From assembly GCA_017532085.1 (NCBI GenBank), contig JAFXJT010000067.1, positions 1-52,296 on the forward strand: 52,296 nt of DNA, written 5' to 3'. The stretch comes from Oscillospiraceae bacterium (GTDB lineage Bacteria > Bacillota > Clostridia > Oscillospirales > Ruminococcaceae). A program made the position numbers and the translations under genes. Within the stretch, counting starts at the first letter, position 1, and each line of letters starts with the position of its first letter. Of the stretch, positions 8,466 to 14,113 are shown piece after piece. The notes beneath the pieces were generated by a model. That model saw only the letters and a program-made list of their open reading frames with translations, did not search any database and was not told the DNA's origin.

Positions 8466-8494
8466 ATTATACCATATGGCTCTGGGATTGTCAA
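8466..8494 (-). promoter_or_regulatory. Consensus promoter of the RR-HK-ABC-permease operon
   Basis: Read on the minus strand, TTGACA (8494-8489) and TATAAT (8471-8466) are both perfect, with a 17-bp spacer. The -35 box overlaps that of the divergent promoter. Confidence 0.85.
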
Positions 8495-8516
8495 AACAAA
8501 AGATCTGTGTTATAAT
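8488..8516 (+). promoter_or_regulatory. Divergent promoter of the phosphoesterase gene
   Basis: TTGTCA (8488-8493) and TATAAT (8511-8516) are 17 bp apart. The -35 box shares five bases with the opposite promoter, because TTGTCAA is the reverse complement of TTGACAA. Confidence 0.82.
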
Positions 8517-8545: not shown

Positions 8546-9112
8546 ATGAAATGGATGATTGCATCGGATCTGCATGGATCCGCATATTATACTGCACAAT
8601 TGCTTGAGGCATATGCCAAAGAACAGGCAGAGCGCCTGATTCTGTTGGGAGATCTGCTCTATCATGGTCCGCGCAATGCTCTGCCGAAGGAATACGATCC
8701 TCAAGGGGTGATCACCATGCTCAATGCCCATTCTCAATCTCTGTTATGTGTCAGAGGGAATTGTGATACCGAAGTGGATCAGATGGTACTGACATTTCCG
8801 ATCCTTGCGGAATATGCCATTCTCAGTGTAGGATCCCATCTGATTTTTGCGACCCATGGACATCATTTTCACAGCAATCAGCTGCCGCCCATACAGCCGC
8901 ACAATATCCTGCTGCATGGGCATACGCATATTCCGTGCTGTCGGCAATATGATACCCATCGTTATTGCAATCCGGGATCTGTTTCGATTCCGAAGGAAGG
9001 CTCTGTGCACAGCTATATGACGATGGAGGATACCATCCTGCGCTGGAAATCACTGAGCGGCAAAGAGTATCATTGCTGTGATCTTGGTGCAGCGGCATTG
9101 CCTGTCCTTTGA
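8546..9112 (+). CDS. YfcE/MJ0936-type metallophosphoesterase
   Basis: A protein of 188 residues with the five metallophosphoesterase blocks: Asp8/His10 in SDLHGS, Asp36 in LLGDLLYHGPRN, Asn72/Asp74 in GNCD, His104 in ATHGHHFH and GHTH at 125-128. Members of the family hydrolyse phosphodiesters with Mn2+ or Ni2+, but physiological substrates are generally unknown. The length matches E. coli YfcE (about 184 residues). ATG at 8546 follows AAAGGAGA. The gene has its own promoter back to back with the two-component operon. No terminator is visible before the next promoter. Confidence 0.9.
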   Translation: MKWMIASDLHGSAYYTAQLLEAYAKEQAERLILLGDLLYHGPRNALPKEYDPQGVITMLNAHSQSLLCVRGNCDTEVDQMVLTFPILAEYAILSVGSHLIFATHGHHFHSNQLPPIQPHNILLHGHTHIPCCRQYDTHRYCNPGSVSIPKEGSVHSYMTMEDTILRWKSLSGKEYHCCDLGAAALPVL

Positions 9113-9134
9113 TCCGCACAGAGGAAGATTACAC

Positions 9135-9163
9135 TTGACAGTTTTTCTTTTTTTGTGTATAAT
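9135..9163 (+). promoter_or_regulatory. Perfect consensus promoter of the hydEGF operon
   Basis: TTGACA (9135-9140) and TATAAT (9158-9163) are separated by 17 bp. Transcription would begin near 9170, about 245 nt before the first start codon. Confidence 0.9.
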
Positions 9164-9169
9164 TAGGGA

Positions 9170-9413
9170 AAGAACCTCCAAACAGTTCCCGAATGTCCGG
9201 TGACGAAATCGCTCCGCACATGAGGCAGCCGGTTTGGATTCTGTATGCAACTTTATGTTTTTCTTTGCTCTGACGTGAAACTATCTGCCGATATTGACAC
9301 GAAAGTACAAGGATTCTCTTGTTATGCTATCATGAGATCGCTGTGTCCTTTCCTGTCCGGACATGGCGATTTTGTTTTGTTCTGCGCAAGAATCTTAGGG
9401 AGAAGGGAGGCGT
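9170..9413 (+). promoter_or_regulatory. Long structured 5' leader upstream of hydE, candidate cis-regulatory RNA
   Basis: No protein-coding evidence is visible here. The stem TCCAAAC (9177-9183) / GTTTGGA (9232-9238) encloses a GC-rich region with CCGG at 9197-9200 and at 9229-9232. A small hairpin ACAAG/CTTGT follows near 9308-9322, then a strong terminator at 9337-9380. The segment ATGTCCGG (9193-9200) is exactly complementary to CCGGACAT (9357-9364), inside the terminator, so it could act as an anti-terminator. The sequence does not match the core consensus of T-box, TPP, SAM, FMN, cobalamin, glycine, Moco or ZTP riboswitches as I know them. The regulatory role is inferred. Confidence 0.6.
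9337..9380 (+). terminator. Intrinsic terminator inside the hydE leader (attenuator)
   Basis: The 12-bp stem ATCGCTGTGTCC (9337-9348) / GGACATGGCGAT (9359-9370), with two G-T wobbles and a 10-nt loop, is followed by TTTGTTTTGT. It lies 34 bases before the hydE start, well downstream of the promoter, which is the typical position of an attenuator. Confidence 0.8.
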
Positions 9414-10484
9414 ATGATCCATATGCATGATCCAATCACTTCGTTGATTACAAAGCTCTCCACGGAGCATCGGCTCTCAGCAGAAGGCTATGCACAATTG
9501 CTGACCACAGAAGATCCTGCGGTACAGGATGCTCTGATTACAGCCGCAGTTGCCGTGCGAAAAGCACAGTTTGGCAATGGAATCTTTCTGCGCGGTCTCA
9601 TTGAACTGACCAATTACTGCAAGAATAACTGCTATTATTGTGGGATTCGGAGGGATAACAAGGACGTTATGCGATATCGCATGAGCCATCAAGCGGTTCT
9701 GGATTGCTGTCAGATGGGTGCAGAACTTGGCTTTCGTACCTTTGTGCTGCAGGGCGGTGAGGATCCTTACTGGAATGATGCACGACTTTGTGCACTGATC
9801 ACCGATATCAAGGCAAGATTTCCGCAATGTGCTGTCACGGTCTCTTTGGGAGAACGCTCCGAAGAAAGCTATCGGGCGCTGCGGGATGCCGGTGCGGATC
9901 GGTATTTGCTGCGGCATGAAACAGCAGATTCGCAGCATTATGCCATGCTGCATCCGCCGGAAATGTCGCTTGCAAATCGGATGCGATGTCTGAGAACGCT
10001 GAAATCGCTGGGATATCAGACAGGCTGCGGTATGATGGTAGGCTCTCCTTACCAGACAATCGAACATTTGGTCAAGGATTTGCAGTGGATCGAAGCATTG
10101 CAGCCGGAAACGGTCGGCATCGGACCTTTTCTGCCGCATCATGCCACACCCTTTGCTGCATTTCCCGCAGGCTCTGCAGCCATGACATTGCGATTGCTTT
10201 CCATCGTCCGATTGATGCTGCCGACTGTTCTGCTGCCGGCAACGACTGCTCTTGGAACCTTACTGCCCGATGGCTTGGAGCAGGGGATTCTGGCAGGTGC
10301 CAATGTCATCATGCCCAATCTCACGCCCAATACGGAACGCTGCAATTATCAGCTGTATGACGGAAAATGCACTGCCGCAAAGGATACGCTCTCGGTACTC
10401 AGAGATCGAACGCTGCGTTTTGCCGCCATCGGCTATGAAACCGTACACCAAAGAGGCGATGCGCCTTCTTTTCTCAAACCATGA
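9414..10484 (+). CDS. hydE: [FeFe]-hydrogenase maturase HydE, radical SAM enzyme
   Basis: A protein of 356 residues, normal for the family. The radical-SAM cluster motif CX3CX2C is Cys69, Cys73 and Cys76 in NYCKNNCYYCGIR, and the HydE-type stretch FVLQGGEDPYW follows. HydE acts with HydG and HydF to assemble the 2Fe subcluster of the hydrogenase H-cluster; it works on the HydG-derived Fe-CO-CN synthon. It resembles biotin synthase and PylB, but the adjacent hydG and hydF make HydE clear. Start choice: ATG at 9414 lies three bases after AAGGGAGG and a second in-frame ATG lies at 9423, so either may be used. No hydrogenase structural gene is in the window. Confidence 0.95.
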   Translation: MIHMHDPITSLITKLSTEHRLSAEGYAQLLTTEDPAVQDALITAAVAVRKAQFGNGIFLRGLIELTNYCKNNCYYCGIRRDNKDVMRYRMSHQAVLDCCQMGAELGFRTFVLQGGEDPYWNDARLCALITDIKARFPQCAVTVSLGERSEESYRALRDAGADRYLLRHETADSQHYAMLHPPEMSLANRMRCLRTLKSLGYQTGCGMMVGSPYQTIEHLVKDLQWIEALQPETVGIGPFLPHHATPFAAFPAGSAAMTLRLLSIVRLMLPTVLLPATTALGTLLPDGLEQGILAGANVIMPNLTPNTERCNYQLYDGKCTAAKDTLSVLRDRTLRFAAIGYETVHQRGDAPSFLKP

Positions 10485-10508: not shown

Positions 10509-11924
10509 ATGTATAATCCCAAATCTCTGAAAGCCGAAGAATTCATTTGCCATGAGGAAGTGCTTGATACTCTCGCATATGCCGAAGAAAACAAAAACAA
10601 TGTTGCTTTGATTGATCAGATTATTGCAAAAGCGAAGCTTCGCAAGGGGCTGGATCATCGTGAGGCATCTGTCCTGCTTGCCTGCGAAATCCCGGAAAAA
10701 ATCAATGCGCTTTATGCCCTTGCGCATCAGATCAAACTGGATTTCTACGGCAATCGCATTGTGATGTTTGCGCCCCTTTATCTTTCCAATTATTGTGTCA
10801 ATGGCTGTGTATATTGCCCGTATCATCATCAGAACAAGCATATTCCCCGGATTAAGCTGACACAGGAGCAGATCCGCAATGAGGTCATTGCATTGCAGGA
10901 TATGGGACACAAGCGTCTTGCCATTGAAGCCGGAGAAGATCCGGTCAACAATCCCATTGAATATATTCTGGAAAGCATCAAGACCATTTACAGCATCCAG
11001 CATAAAAACGGAGCCATTCGCCGTGTCAATGTGAACATCGCTGCCACCACTGTGGAAAACTATCGGAAACTGAAAGAGGCAGGCATCGGTACCTATATTT
11101 TGTTCCAGGAAACCTATCATAAAGAGAGCTATGAAAAGCTGCATCCCACAGGCCCCAAGCATAACTATGCTTATCACACCGAGGCAATGGATCGTGCGAT
11201 GGAGGGCGGTATTGATGACGTAGGTCTGGGCGTTTTGTTTGGTCTGGAGCTGTATAAGTATGAATTTGCAGCGCTTCTGATGCACGCTGAGCATCTGGAG
11301 GCTGTTCATGGTGTGGGCCCTCATACGATCAGTGTACCACGAATTAAGCGTGCCGATGATATTGATCCTAACGTGTTCGATAACGGGATTGATGATGAAA
11401 CCTTTGCAAAAATCTGTGCCTTGATTCGTGTTTGTGTTCCTTACACCGGCATGATCATCAGCACGCGTGAGAGTCAGCAGGTACGAGAAAAGGTATTGCC
11501 GCTGGGCGTTTCTCAGATCAGCGGAGCCTCTCGAACCAGTGTTGGCGGCTATTGCGAAGAGGTGCGTCCTCATGAATCCGAGCAGTTTGATGTCAGCGAC
11601 AGCCGTACCCTCGATGAAGTGGTTCGTTGGCTCATGGAGGGCGGATATATTCCTTCGTTCTGCACAGCCTGCTATCGTGAGGGCAGAACCGGTGATCGGT
11701 TTATGAGTCTTTGCAAAACCGGTCAGATTCAGAACTGCTGCCATCCCAATGCGCTGCTTACGCTGAAGGAATATCTCATGGATTATGCATCTGACGAAAC
11801 CAGAGCCGTCGGTGAAGCACTGATTGCCAAAGAGATTCACAATATTCCCAATGAAAAGGCAAAGGCAATCTGCGAAGCACATCTTGGTTCCATTGCGGAT
11901 GGAAAACGAGATTTTCGTTTCTGA
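10509..11924 (+). CDS. hydG: [FeFe]-hydrogenase maturase HydG, tyrosine lyase
   Basis: A radical SAM enzyme of 471 residues that cleaves tyrosine to p-cresol and dehydroglycine and supplies CO and cyanide as an Fe(CO)2(CN)-cysteine synthon. The N-terminal cluster motif is Cys96, Cys100 and Cys103 (NYCVNGCVYCPY). The C-terminal auxiliary cluster motif CX2CX22C that separates HydG from ThiH is complete at Cys385, Cys388 and Cys411. ATG at 10509 follows AAAGGA. The gene begins 24 bases after hydE, in the same operon. Confidence 0.97.
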   Translation: MYNPKSLKAEEFICHEEVLDTLAYAEENKNNVALIDQIIAKAKLRKGLDHREASVLLACEIPEKINALYALAHQIKLDFYGNRIVMFAPLYLSNYCVNGCVYCPYHHQNKHIPRIKLTQEQIRNEVIALQDMGHKRLAIEAGEDPVNNPIEYILESIKTIYSIQHKNGAIRRVNVNIAATTVENYRKLKEAGIGTYILFQETYHKESYEKLHPTGPKHNYAYHTEAMDRAMEGGIDDVGLGVLFGLELYKYEFAALLMHAEHLEAVHGVGPHTISVPRIKRADDIDPNVFDNGIDDETFAKICALIRVCVPYTGMIISTRESQQVREKVLPLGVSQISGASRTSVGGYCEEVRPHESEQFDVSDSRTLDEVVRWLMEGGYIPSFCTACYREGRTGDRFMSLCKTGQIQNCCHPNALLTLKEYLMDYASDETRAVGEALIAKEIHNIPNEKAKAICEAHLGSIADGKRDFRF

Positions 11925-11959: not shown

Positions 11960-13180
11960 ATGGGCTTACAGGAAGTCGCAACAGCAGATCGGATTCATAT
12001 TTCGGTATTCGGTGCACGCAATGCAGGCAAATCCAGTCTTGTGAATGCGCTGACCGGACAGAAGGTATCCATTGTCTCGGATACACCGGGTACCACCACC
12101 GATGCGGTACACAAAACCATGGAGCTTTTGCCGCTGGGCCCTGTGGTCATCACCGATACGGCAGGCTATGACGATGAAGGCGAACTGGGCAGACAGCGGA
12201 TGGAACAAACCAGACTCACACTCTATCGCACTGATCTTGCCATTCTGGTGCTGGATGGCACACGCAATCAGACAGCAATCCGACAGCAGCTGACATCCAT
12301 GCTGGTACAGCAAAGCATTCCCTATGTGGTGGTGTATAATAAGCTGGATCAGATGGGTACCGTACCGGTGTTGCAGGAAAATGAAATTGCTGTCAGCGCA
12401 GTAACCGGTGAGGGAATCGAGGCGCTGAAGGAAAAGCTTGGTTCCATGCATCAGATGGTGCAGCAGGATCGTAACATCCTTGCAGATCTGATTTCGCAGC
12501 GGGATGTGATTATATTGGTGACTCCCATTGACGAATCTGCACCTAAGGGTCGATTGATCCTGCCCCAGCAGCAGACGCTGCGTGAGATTCTGGATTGTCA
12601 CGCCATACCCTTGCTGACGCAGCCGCAGGAGCTGCCGACCTTGTTGGAGCTTCTGCAGACTCCGCCTCGTATGGTCATTACAGACAGTCAGGCATTCGGT
12701 GAGGTCAACAAATGTTTGCCAAAGGATATTCCCTTAACTTCTTTCTCTATTCTCATGGCACGCTATAAAGGCTTTCTGGATACAGCGGTGGAAGGTGTTC
12801 GTGCTTTGCGTCGGCTGCAGGATGGTGCAAAGATCCTGATTGCAGAGGGCTGCACCCATCATCGGCAGTGCAATGATATTGGCACTGTAAAGCTGCCGAA
12901 GCTTCTGCAGGCATTGACAGGAAAGCAATTTGCCTTTTCCTTTACTTCGGGCGGCACGTTTCCGGAGGATCTTTCACCCTATGCGCTGGTTGTGCATTGC
13001 GGCGGCTGTATGCGTACCGAGCGGGAAATGCTTTGGCGTATGCGCTGTGCACGTGCTCAAGGGATTCCGTTTACCAATTATGGAATCGCATTGGCAGAAT
13101 GTCACGGTATTCTTCATCGTTCCCTGATGGGTGAGTGTTTGCTTTCTCATGACAGTATTCATCCCGAAACCAAGGAGTGA
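11960..13180 (+). CDS. hydF: [FeFe]-hydrogenase maturation GTPase and scaffold HydF
   Basis: A protein of 406 residues. The N-terminal GTPase domain has the P-loop GARNAGKSS (18-26), switch DTPGTTTD, G3 DTAG (66-69) and NKLD. The C-terminal FeS site follows the HydF pattern CxH...HCxxC with Cys298, His300, His346, Cys347 and Cys350. HydF receives the 2Fe precursor from HydE and HydG and hands it to apo-hydrogenase. ATG at 11960 follows AAAAGGAGA. Third gene of the operon. Confidence 0.96.
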   Translation: MGLQEVATADRIHISVFGARNAGKSSLVNALTGQKVSIVSDTPGTTTDAVHKTMELLPLGPVVITDTAGYDDEGELGRQRMEQTRLTLYRTDLAILVLDGTRNQTAIRQQLTSMLVQQSIPYVVVYNKLDQMGTVPVLQENEIAVSAVTGEGIEALKEKLGSMHQMVQQDRNILADLISQRDVIILVTPIDESAPKGRLILPQQQTLREILDCHAIPLLTQPQELPTLLELLQTPPRMVITDSQAFGEVNKCLPKDIPLTSFSILMARYKGFLDTAVEGVRALRRLQDGAKILIAEGCTHHRQCNDIGTVKLPKLLQALTGKQFAFSFTSGGTFPEDLSPYALVVHCGGCMRTEREMLWRMRCARAQGIPFTNYGIALAECHGILHRSLMGECLLSHDSIHPETKE

Positions 13181-13185
13181 ACATT

Positions 13186-13899
13186 GTGAAATATCAAACT
13201 TCCGATCAGCATCAGATCGCTGATATCGAATATTTTACAGAGTGTTCGGGGGATGCTCCGATTTCTGTTTATATCATTCACGGAACTGACGGAGATATGC
13301 TGATAGATACAGGATTTCGAACGACATATCAGCCTTTGCTCCAATGGATTCATCGGCATCATTTTACGATCAAAGATATTTTCATCACACATGCGCATCC
13401 TGACCATGATTGGAATGCCGCTCAATTCAAGAGAATGTTCGGCGCTAGAATATGGCTGTCCGAAAACGATATTCCTTTGATCAGTCATTTTGGAAATCAG
13501 CCACAATTTCCAACCGAAAAGCGATTTGCAGCCAGAACCAAATGGATTTCATTCTGGACAAAAACGCCTTTGTTTCACAGTGAAACATATACCCCGGATG
13601 TTGTCATTACAGGCGATGATCCTGAAATAGGCAAACGATATGGATATGATGTTGCAGTCGTAACACTGCCCGGTCATACGCTTGGTTCTGTTGGCATTCT
13701 TCGAGACAATGTGTTATATGCAGGAGATGCCTATACGGTCATGAATGGTGTGCCCATGCTGCCGCCGCACGCTGCATCCGTGGAAAAGATGTTGGCTTCT
13801 TATCAAAAGATTGCAGGCATTGCGCCCGAATATTTGGCTTGTGGTCACGGTTTGCCGTTCCAATTCAACCATACATACCAAAACAAAGAAAACGGATAG
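13186..13899 (+). CDS. Metallo-beta-lactamase-fold hydrolase
   Basis: A protein of 237 residues with the metal motif HAHPDHD, then a downstream His (LPGHTLGSVGI), an Asp (YAGDAYTV) and a final GHG. These are the zinc ligands of the MBL superfamily; the subfamily (glyoxalase II-like or other) is not determined. GTG at 13186 is preferred because AAGGAG at 13172-13177 sits eight bases before it. The alternative GTG at 13177 would lie inside that ribosome binding site. It starts six bases after the hydF stop and is co-transcribed with hydEGF, but a role in hydrogenase maturation is not known. The stop codon lies within the terminator stem. Confidence 0.85.
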   Translation: MKYQTSDQHQIADIEYFTECSGDAPISVYIIHGTDGDMLIDTGFRTTYQPLLQWIHRHHFTIKDIFITHAHPDHDWNAAQFKRMFGARIWLSENDIPLISHFGNQPQFPTEKRFAARTKWISFWTKTPLFHSETYTPDVVITGDDPEIGKRYGYDVAVVTLPGHTLGSVGILRDNVLYAGDAYTVMNGVPMLPPHAASVEKMLASYQKIAGIAPEYLACGHGLPFQFNHTYQNKENG

Positions 13900-14026: not shown

Positions 14027-14113
14027 TGGTGCCGCTAACCGGACTTGAACCGGTACAATGTTGCCATCGAGGGATTTTAAGTCCCTTGTGTCTGCCAATT
14101 CCACCATAGCGGC
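14027..14113 (-). tRNA. tRNA-Leu (anticodon UAA)
   Basis: The acceptor stem GCCGCTA / TAGCGGC spans 14113-14107 and 14037-14031, with discriminator A and an encoded CCA (14029-14027). The anticodon arm AGGGA-CTTAAAA-TCCCT gives UAA. The T-arm contains GGTTCAAGTCC. The extended variable arm marks a class II tRNA. Length is 87 nt. Confidence 0.96.

What the first reader, a model, noticed from the sequence alone, without database searches (positions are those of the whole stretch)
9170..9413. Candidate undescribed regulatory RNA controlling [FeFe]-hydrogenase maturation genes
A perfect promoter is followed by about 245 nt of non-coding leader that ends in a 12-bp intrinsic terminator just before hydE. 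ATGTCCGG (9193-9200) is exactly complementary to CCGGACAT (9357-9364) inside the terminator, and TCCAAAC/GTTTGGA closes an upstream domain. This is the layout of a riboswitch or attenuator. The operon makes the H-cluster, so iron, SAM, tyrosine or redox state are possible signals (inference). I recognise no known riboswitch consensus.
Basis: partly seen in the sequence, partly recalled or inferred. Interest (0 to 1): 0.78.

Follow-up and report, generated by a model that had tools for sequence, protein, structure and literature searches.

The report
New hydrogenase-assembly RNA switch
In front of the genes that assemble the iron core of hydrogen-making enzymes sits a small folded RNA, shared by many related anaerobic bacteria and absent from the RNA catalogue we searched, that looks like an off-switch and may be controlled by a protein of so far unknown job.

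Summary
The leader of hydE-hydG-hydF is real and belongs to a conserved, apparently undescribed cis-regulatory RNA. It covaries: 75 aligned copies, score 0.644 against 0.158 shuffled. In a search requiring no pairing, 29 of 38 sequence matches paired fully; reversed control 0 of 3. A covariance model hit 66 of 293 class genomes at 79 places (E<=0.02); 73 of 79 lie beside H-cluster maturation genes, the TM1266 gene or linked transporter genes (13 by coordinates). No Rfam family reaches threshold. Of 47 verified copies, 18 lie against a start codon; of the 29 others, 25 are followed by a terminator (shuffles 0.55) whose 5' arm tends to pair with the hairpin's 3' strand (p=7e-8, n=39). So the folded hairpin should switch genes off (inferred). 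The motif tracks TM1266: 53 of 151 HydG genomes with it, 2 of 43 without (within-family p=1e-4). TM1266 as RNA-binding effector is inferred; a riboswitch is the main rival.

The parts
9135..9163 (+). sigma-70-type promoter, TTGACA - 17 nt - TATAAT; start of transcription inferred near 9170
   Evidence: 12 of 12 consensus match; transcript start not measured
9170..9256 (+). 5' part of the leader with a local hairpin closed by TCCAAAC/GTTTGGA; not part of the shared motif
   Evidence: fold; a DNA search of 61 genomes gave the window itself plus short matches; those inspected around 9194-9218 looked like coding sequence
9263..9312 (+). conserved sensor hairpin (match to covariance model R1). P1 9262-9267/9308-9313; CU/AG 9270-9271/9304-9305; P2 9274-9277/9298-9301; 2x2 internal loops 9272-9273/9302-9303 and 9278-9279/9296-9297; upper stem 9282-9285/9290-9293
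   Evidence: unforced MFE of leader and of isolated segment; R1 32.2 bits, own-genome E 1.1e-4, but the window copy is one of the 18 that built R1, so this match is partly by construction; covariation over 75 copies
9301..9321 (+). inferred antiterminator strand: 3' end of the sensor hairpin plus following bases, pairs with 9331-9352
   Evidence: fold of the nascent transcript up to 9353; duplex of 9291-9318 with 9326-9358 is -16.9 kcal/mol, mean with other loci's terminators -7.1, but 13% of mismatched pairs are as strong
9332..9375 (+). intrinsic terminator hairpin (12-bp core 9337-9348/9359-9370), then T-rich tail
   Evidence: same layout in relatives
9397..9413 (+). Shine-Dalgarno region of hydE
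   Evidence: read from the sequence
9414..10484 (+). hydE, radical SAM H-cluster maturase
   Evidence: NCBIfam TIGR03956 505 bits, cut-off 255
10509..11924 (+). hydG, radical SAM H-cluster maturase
   Evidence: NCBIfam TIGR03955 931 bits, cut-off 312
11960..13180 (+). hydF, H-cluster maturation GTPase
   Evidence: NCBIfam TIGR03918 521 bits, cut-off 326

Best explanation
A conserved cis-regulatory RNA hairpin is an off-switch for H-cluster maturation genes and their TM1266-linked neighbours. SHOWN by computation: a hairpin of about 45 nt with two near-identical internal-loop motifs in pseudo-twofold arrangement, covarying stems, placement before hydE/hydG/hydF/TM1266 genes, and coupling either to an intrinsic terminator whose 5' arm tends to be complementary to the hairpin's 3' strand, or to a start codon close behind it. 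INFERRED: when its effector stabilises the hairpin, the terminator forms (or the ribosome site is masked) and the genes are off; without effector the 3' strand pairs with the terminator's 5' arm and transcription reads through. INFERRED, less certain: the effector is the small TM1266-family protein (PF21699, weakly like the NikR C-terminal domain), binding the twofold RNA as a dimer and sensing an H-cluster- or iron-related signal. In the window genome TM1266 is encoded on another contig, so it would act in trans.
For: Covariation: A1, 18 copies, 96.6% of cells paired, score 0.782 against 0.188 shuffled; A3, 75 copies, 92.6%, 0.644 against 0.158, slid pairings at most 0.156. Search without pairing as a criterion: 29 of 38 matches fully paired, reversed 0 of 3. 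Model searches of 293 genomes: R1 54 places, 47 of 54 next to hyd/TM1266 genes on the same strand; R2 79 places, 73 of 79 in such contexts (coordinates). Output: 18 of 47 copies lie within 20 nt of a start codon; of the other 29, 25 have a terminator, shuffled expectation 0.55. Matched motif-terminator duplexes are 3.3 kcal/mol better than mismatched, p=7e-8, n=39. TM1266: 61 of 63 context-checked motif genomes have it (lists); HydG+ genomes: motif in 53 of 151 with and 2 of 43 without TM1266, within-family permutation p=1e-4, mixed families 24 of 58 against 2 of 38; HydG- genomes: 6 of 32 with, 0 of 67 without (E<=1e-3). The two exceptions (G071 97%, G224 93% complete) have genus-mates with TM1266. 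TM1266 keeps basic residues at R36, K76, R5.
Against: No binding, transcript or termination data. 98 of 151 HydG+TM1266+ genomes have no detected motif (one of them is the window's own genome, whose copy the strict filters missed, so sensitivity is limited). The window genome's TM1266 gene has no motif before it. One motif copy precedes a transporter gene with no TM1266 beside it (G215, L250). In some searches the two measures that count pairs or pair types are less or not exceptional against shuffles (165 and 2 of 500; 24 and 194 of 500). Hairpins are only moderately stable (z -0.9 to -2.5, four copies). Several copies pair with their terminator no better than with others (L042, L112 first copy, L139, L147 second copy, L150). 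SD-like letters occur in the tail of 18 of 18 near-start copies, but 10.9 are expected after shuffling and 16 of 29 terminator-type copies have them too, so proximity to the start, not the SD letters, carries that point. At TM1266 position 66 the window's protein has Q where most have K.
Confidence: 0.6

Rival explanations
1. A true riboswitch: the hairpin binds a small molecule directly (for example a HydE/HydG intermediate, SAM, tyrosine, iron or an imported precursor), and TM1266 co-occurs because it handles the same compound.
For: Nearly invariant loop bases (column counts), the two outputs, transporter genes behind some copies, tandem copies.
Against: Motif follows TM1266 rather than HydG; core is small and pseudo-twofold, more like a protein-dimer site (inference).
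Confidence: 0.28
2. Another, unidentified RNA-binding protein, or a redox- or metal-dependent folding change, is the effector; TM1266 is only a passenger of the same operons.
For: 98 of 151 HydG+TM1266+ genomes have no detected motif.
Against: Within-family association with TM1266.
Confidence: 0.1
3. One reading: the 5' domain is the sensor and ATGTCCGG/CCGGACAT is the antiterminator.
For: The complementarity is present.
Against: 10.6 kcal/mol less stable than the free fold; no homologous leader found by DNA similarity.
Confidence: 0.04
4. A DNA operator or chance hairpin rather than an RNA element.
For: Short motif; 6 of 79 R2 places are at unrelated sites, about what chance predicts.
Against: Variable stem bases covary while flanks stay fixed; 47 of 54 R1 places stand on the coding strand just before hyd or TM1266 genes, with a start codon or terminator behind most.
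Confidence: 0.02

Closest known systems
Metabolite-sensing riboswitches with terminator/antiterminator or SD-masking platforms
   Same: Conserved structured leader, alternative pairing with the terminator 5' arm or closeness to the start codon, tandem copies
   Different: No Rfam family at threshold (relaxed searches list only weak matches that do not overlap the motif); ligand unknown; core is a small pseudo-twofold hairpin
RNA-binding attenuation and translational repressor systems (for example PyrR, LicT/SacY, ribosomal-protein leaders; recalled)
   Same: A small hairpin that a protein could stabilise to choose between terminator and antiterminator; regulator gene often in the controlled operon
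   Different: TM1266 is not known to bind RNA (recalled); sequence comparison with those leaders was not made beyond Rfam
Moco/Wco and NiCo riboswitches
   Same: Leaders linked to metal-cofactor genes; tandem Wco riboswitches reported before hydrogenase genes (PMC9481103, passage seen)
   Different: No such Rfam model matches at threshold in the window or in 40 hyd loci
TM1266 family, PF21699 / TIGR03959, 'iron-only hydrogenase system regulator, putative'
   Same: Gene adjacent to many motif copies; present in 61 of 63 motif genomes (one search lists)
   Different: Three searches of the held library (listings only) showed no title or abstract on its target or RNA binding

Membership tests
Riboswitch (as a kind) | Conserved structured RNA domain in the leader with covariation | tested here: met
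Riboswitch (as a kind) | Expression platform coupled to the domain | tested here: met
   terminator platform; start-codon platform: proximity only, SD letters not decisive
Riboswitch (as a kind) | Direct binding of a small ligand without protein | not testable with these tools
   needs in-line probing or ITC
Any Rfam 15 family (including T-box, SAM, Moco, NiCo, c-di-GMP classes) | Match at or above the curated gathering score | tested here: not met
   window: only a tRNA at 14030-14113; 40 hyd loci: none, of which 19 hold a model-found motif copy; relaxed: E<=10 on 9050-9450 one weak match outside the motif, E<=5 on 20 motif loci three weak matches outside the motif
Protein-controlled attenuator with TM1266 as effector | Phyletic co-occurrence of protein and RNA | tested here: met
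   many TM1266 genomes lack a detected motif
Protein-controlled attenuator with TM1266 as effector | Conserved basic surface suited to RNA | tested here: inconclusive
   R/K conserved at positions 5, 36, 76 and, less, 66; surface location not tested
Protein-controlled attenuator with TM1266 as effector | Physical binding and effect on termination or translation | not testable with these tools
   experiment needed

The most novel reading that the evidence does not exclude
A new class of RNA element, widespread in the window's class (Clostridia, judging by its named relatives), is the RNA target of the orphan TM1266 family: a NikR-C-like protein dimer that reads a pseudo-twofold RNA hairpin and shuts down H-cluster assembly and a linked, uncharacterised transporter when the cluster or a precursor is plentiful.
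Probability: 0.5. Interest if true: 0.9.

Novelty: new variant of a known kind. Interest (0 to 1): 0.8.

Why it matters
How bacteria adjust assembly of the [FeFe]-hydrogenase H-cluster is, as far as I recall, unclear. A conserved RNA switch in front of hydE, hydG, hydF and TM1266 makes this directly testable, suggests a function for a protein family named only from its gene neighbourhood, and links uncharacterised transporters to hydrogenase maturation.

Tried and rejected
DNA-level search for the leader in 61 genomes gave only short matches; those around 9194-9218 that were inspected looked like coding sequence. Rfam at gathering and relaxed thresholds: nothing on the motif. P1 outside the CU/AG pairs is good in the window but I did not show it to be general. 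A second own-genome hit (C48:16002; R1 E 0.99, R2 E 0.0099) precedes an unrelated gene (SPFH-like by my reading) and lacks a full P2; taken as chance.

Rows dropped or treated specially: 7 of 54 R1 places (G140, G126, G286:2179385, G327:C44, G264, G280, G084) and 6 of 79 R2 places (G160, G140, G323, G000:C48, G149:C22, G314) are counted as not hyd-linked. Five of the 66 R2 genomes (G000, G140, G160, G314, G323) thus have no verified place in that search, leaving 61; one search uses these 61 plus two (G304, G074) verified with R1 only, and does not count the window genome as motif-bearing. Before the context check the R2 counts were 3 of 43 HydG+TM1266- (E<=1e-3) and 2 of 67 with neither (E<=0.02); G160, G140 and G314 then proved unrelated. 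In one search the 15 against 0 (score 12 or more) becomes 20 against 2 at score 11 or more, and L032/L057 are the same locus counted twice. L137 duplicates L077. P2 pairing was a selection criterion, so lean towards it; one search is the test without that bias. One search counts tandem copies twice against one terminator (L077, L112, L147). In one search the distance for G311 was set by me. In one search, 5 of the 7 positive genomes were chosen from loci already known to hold a copy; of the other 15, two were positive. Genomes are related; only the stratified test corrects for that in part.

Literature: ten searches of the held library listed no report of this RNA; I saw only listings, plus passages of PMC9481103 and a word search of PMC2864571 with no occurrence of hydrogenase, hydE or hydG. 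PMC5737381 (224 candidate RNAs, 2017) is not held, so I cannot exclude that the motif is listed there.

Full report
OBSERVATION. The window carries hydE (9414-10484), hydG (10509-11924) and hydF (11960-13180), each far above its NCBIfam cut-off. A 12-of-12 promoter lies at 9135-9163 and a terminator hairpin at 9332-9375. The named pairing ATGTCCGG/CCGGACAT exists, but forcing it costs 10.6 kcal/mol relative to the free fold.

FINDING THE CONSERVED PART. DNA similarity found no homologous leader. hydE loci were collected by protein: 26 places in 25 of 30 genus genomes and the best 80 of 525 loci from species-level genomes. Reading the sequences upstream of hydE showed a recurring pattern CUGA-YNNN-...-GA-N'N'N'R-AAAG, often before a terminator. 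A scoring scan of these 106 loci gave 15 hits at score 12 or more against 0 in the same sequences reversed, and 20 against 2 at score 11 or more (one locus counted twice). Not every hydE gene has it. The window's copy has its core at 9270-9305 (model match 9263-9312). The unforced minimum-energy fold of the whole leader contains this hairpin, with a 6-bp outer stem 9262-9267/9308-9313.

ANATOMY. In 75 aligned copies (column counts) the core reads mostly C-U-G/A-A, four variable pairs, R-A-A-G on the 5' strand and Y-U-G/A-A, four variable pairs, R-A-A-G on the 3' strand. The same element, two pairs followed by a 2x2 mismatch, therefore stands at both ends of a 4-bp stem: a pseudo-twofold hairpin. 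The covariation score is 0.644 against 0.158 for shuffles and at most 0.156 for slid pairings; the two measures that count pairs or pair types stand out less or not at all (24 and 194 of 500 shuffles). Because pairing had been a selection criterion, I repeated the search with sequence alone on 136 hyd loci: 38 matches, 29 with all three inner pairs formed; the reversed control had 3 matches, none paired.

GENOME-WIDE PLACEMENT. Model R1, built from 18 copies from hydE loci, the window's included, hit 50 of 293 class genomes at 54 places at E<=0.05. 47 of 54 lie on the same strand directly before TM1266, hydE, hydG or hydF genes: 46 by comparison with reference proteins and one before a gene that reads as aspartate ammonia-lyase (my reading) followed by hydF. 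The other seven are unrelated; about 15 chance hits were expected. Model R2, from 75 copies, hit 66 of 293 genomes at 79 places at E<=0.02. 73 of 79 are in such contexts (45 checked, 15, 13 by coordinates); two of the 73 stand before transporter genes (G070, G215). Six are unrelated, so 61 of the 66 genomes have a verified place. Of 20 genomes reached through named loci, 7 have it, but five of these were already known to: among them Thermoclostridium caenicola (L077) and Anaeromassilibacillus sp. An200 (L079). The two new ones are MAGs labelled Bacteroidales, where the motif overlaps the start region of a TM1266-hydG unit; misbinning is possible. None was found in the two Treponema and five Coriobacteriia-type genomes tried.

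HOW IT WORKS. Of the 47 verified R1 copies, 18 lie within 20 nt of a start codon. The other 29 lie further off and 25 of them are followed by a terminator, where shuffles give 0.55; the four without are G304, G071, G262 and G336. SD-like letters occur in the tail of 18 of 18 near-start copies, but 10.9 are expected after shuffling and 16 of 29 distant copies have them too, so masking of the ribosome site is inferred from position. The terminator's 5' arm is complementary to the motif's 3' strand: matched pairs are on average 3.3 kcal/mol better than mismatched ones (39 copies, p=7e-8; several single copies do not show it). In the window the fold of the nascent transcript up to 9353 pairs 9301-9321 with 9331-9352, dissolving both P1/P2 and the terminator's 5' arm; the complete leader folds into hairpin plus terminator. 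Both platforms agree in sign: hairpin formed means gene off. This is inference from sequence; no transcript was measured.

WHAT IS SENSED. On the same 293 genomes HydG is found in 194 and TM1266 in 183. The motif is present in 53 of 151 HydG+TM1266+ and 2 of 43 HydG+TM1266- genomes (family-stratified permutation p=1e-4; in the 15 mixed families 24 of 58 against 2 of 38). Without HydG it is 6 of 32 with TM1266 and 0 of 67 without (E<=1e-3). In all, 61 of 63 verified motif genomes have TM1266; the two exceptions are incomplete assemblies whose genus-mates have it. In HydG-less genomes the motif precedes TM1266 plus an ABC transporter (G222, G256), or TM1266 plus iron-siderophore-type transport and NifH-like genes (G183) (functions read from the sequences). 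TM1266 belongs to PF21699, with a NikR_C match just over its cut-off, and has a solved structure, 2nzc, called hypothetical protein. In an alignment of 75 distinct relatives and the window genome's protein, R36 is invariant, position 76 always K or R, position 5 99% and position 66 89% basic (Q in the window genome's protein); no His or Cys is conserved above 75%. A dimer of this protein binding the RNA is my favoured effector, at about even odds; a direct riboswitch is the main rival. The window genome has one TM1266 gene, on another contig and without the motif, so it would act in trans there.

NOVELTY. No Rfam 15 family other than a distant tRNA reaches its gathering score in the window, and none in 40 hyd loci, 19 of which hold a model-found copy. 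Relaxed searches gave only weak matches off the motif. Ten searches of the held open-access library listed no report; one key list of candidate RNAs is not held. The output mechanism is of a known kind; the sensor module and its likely partner are, to my knowledge, new.

LIMITS. Sensitivity is limited: the strict filters missed even the window copy, while the full own-genome search found it at E 1.1e-4. Related genomes are not independent. Effector, sign of regulation and transcript ends need experiment.

Noticed in passing
L221, L209, L240, L250, L257: The motif also stands before genes of an ABC transporter (for the L250 binding protein two Pfam matches just below cut-off, for the L221 one none), with a TM1266 gene in four of the five loci and none in L250; substrate unknown.
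   Followed up: partly
L220, 432-6044, minus strand: Motif, TM1266, a siderophore-type permease, an ATPase carrying a TM1266-like C-terminal part, and a NifH-like protein in one run, in a genome without a HydG hit (functions read from sequence).
   Followed up: partly
L222, L247: Motif, TM1266-like gene (31-34% identity), then a small membrane protein that resembles an ECF S component (recalled; no Pfam match for the L222 one); in L222 hydrogenase NADH-subunit-like genes follow.
   Followed up: no
L077 148-193 and 195-239; L147 1501-1546 and 1551-1594; L112 2581-2625 and 2628-2673: Tandem copies of the motif, starts 47-50 nt apart (the first L077 copy is weak, E 0.11), suggesting cooperative control.
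   Followed up: no
L235, L236: Two MAGs labelled Bacteroidales carry the motif over the start of TM1266-hydG; transfer or misbinning.
   Followed up: partly
window 8466-8516: Two overlapping near-perfect divergent promoters between a response-regulator gene (minus strand) and the phosphodiesterase gene.
   Followed up: no
window 13177-13899: A metallo-beta-lactamase-fold protein gene overlaps the end of hydF and may belong to the operon; below the NCBIfam cut-off of each family listed.
   Followed up: no
L034 1455-1499 (minus strand): A genus-mate in whose hydE leader no motif was found has a copy directly after hydE (next gene not examined), so the switch may move within the operon.
   Followed up: partly
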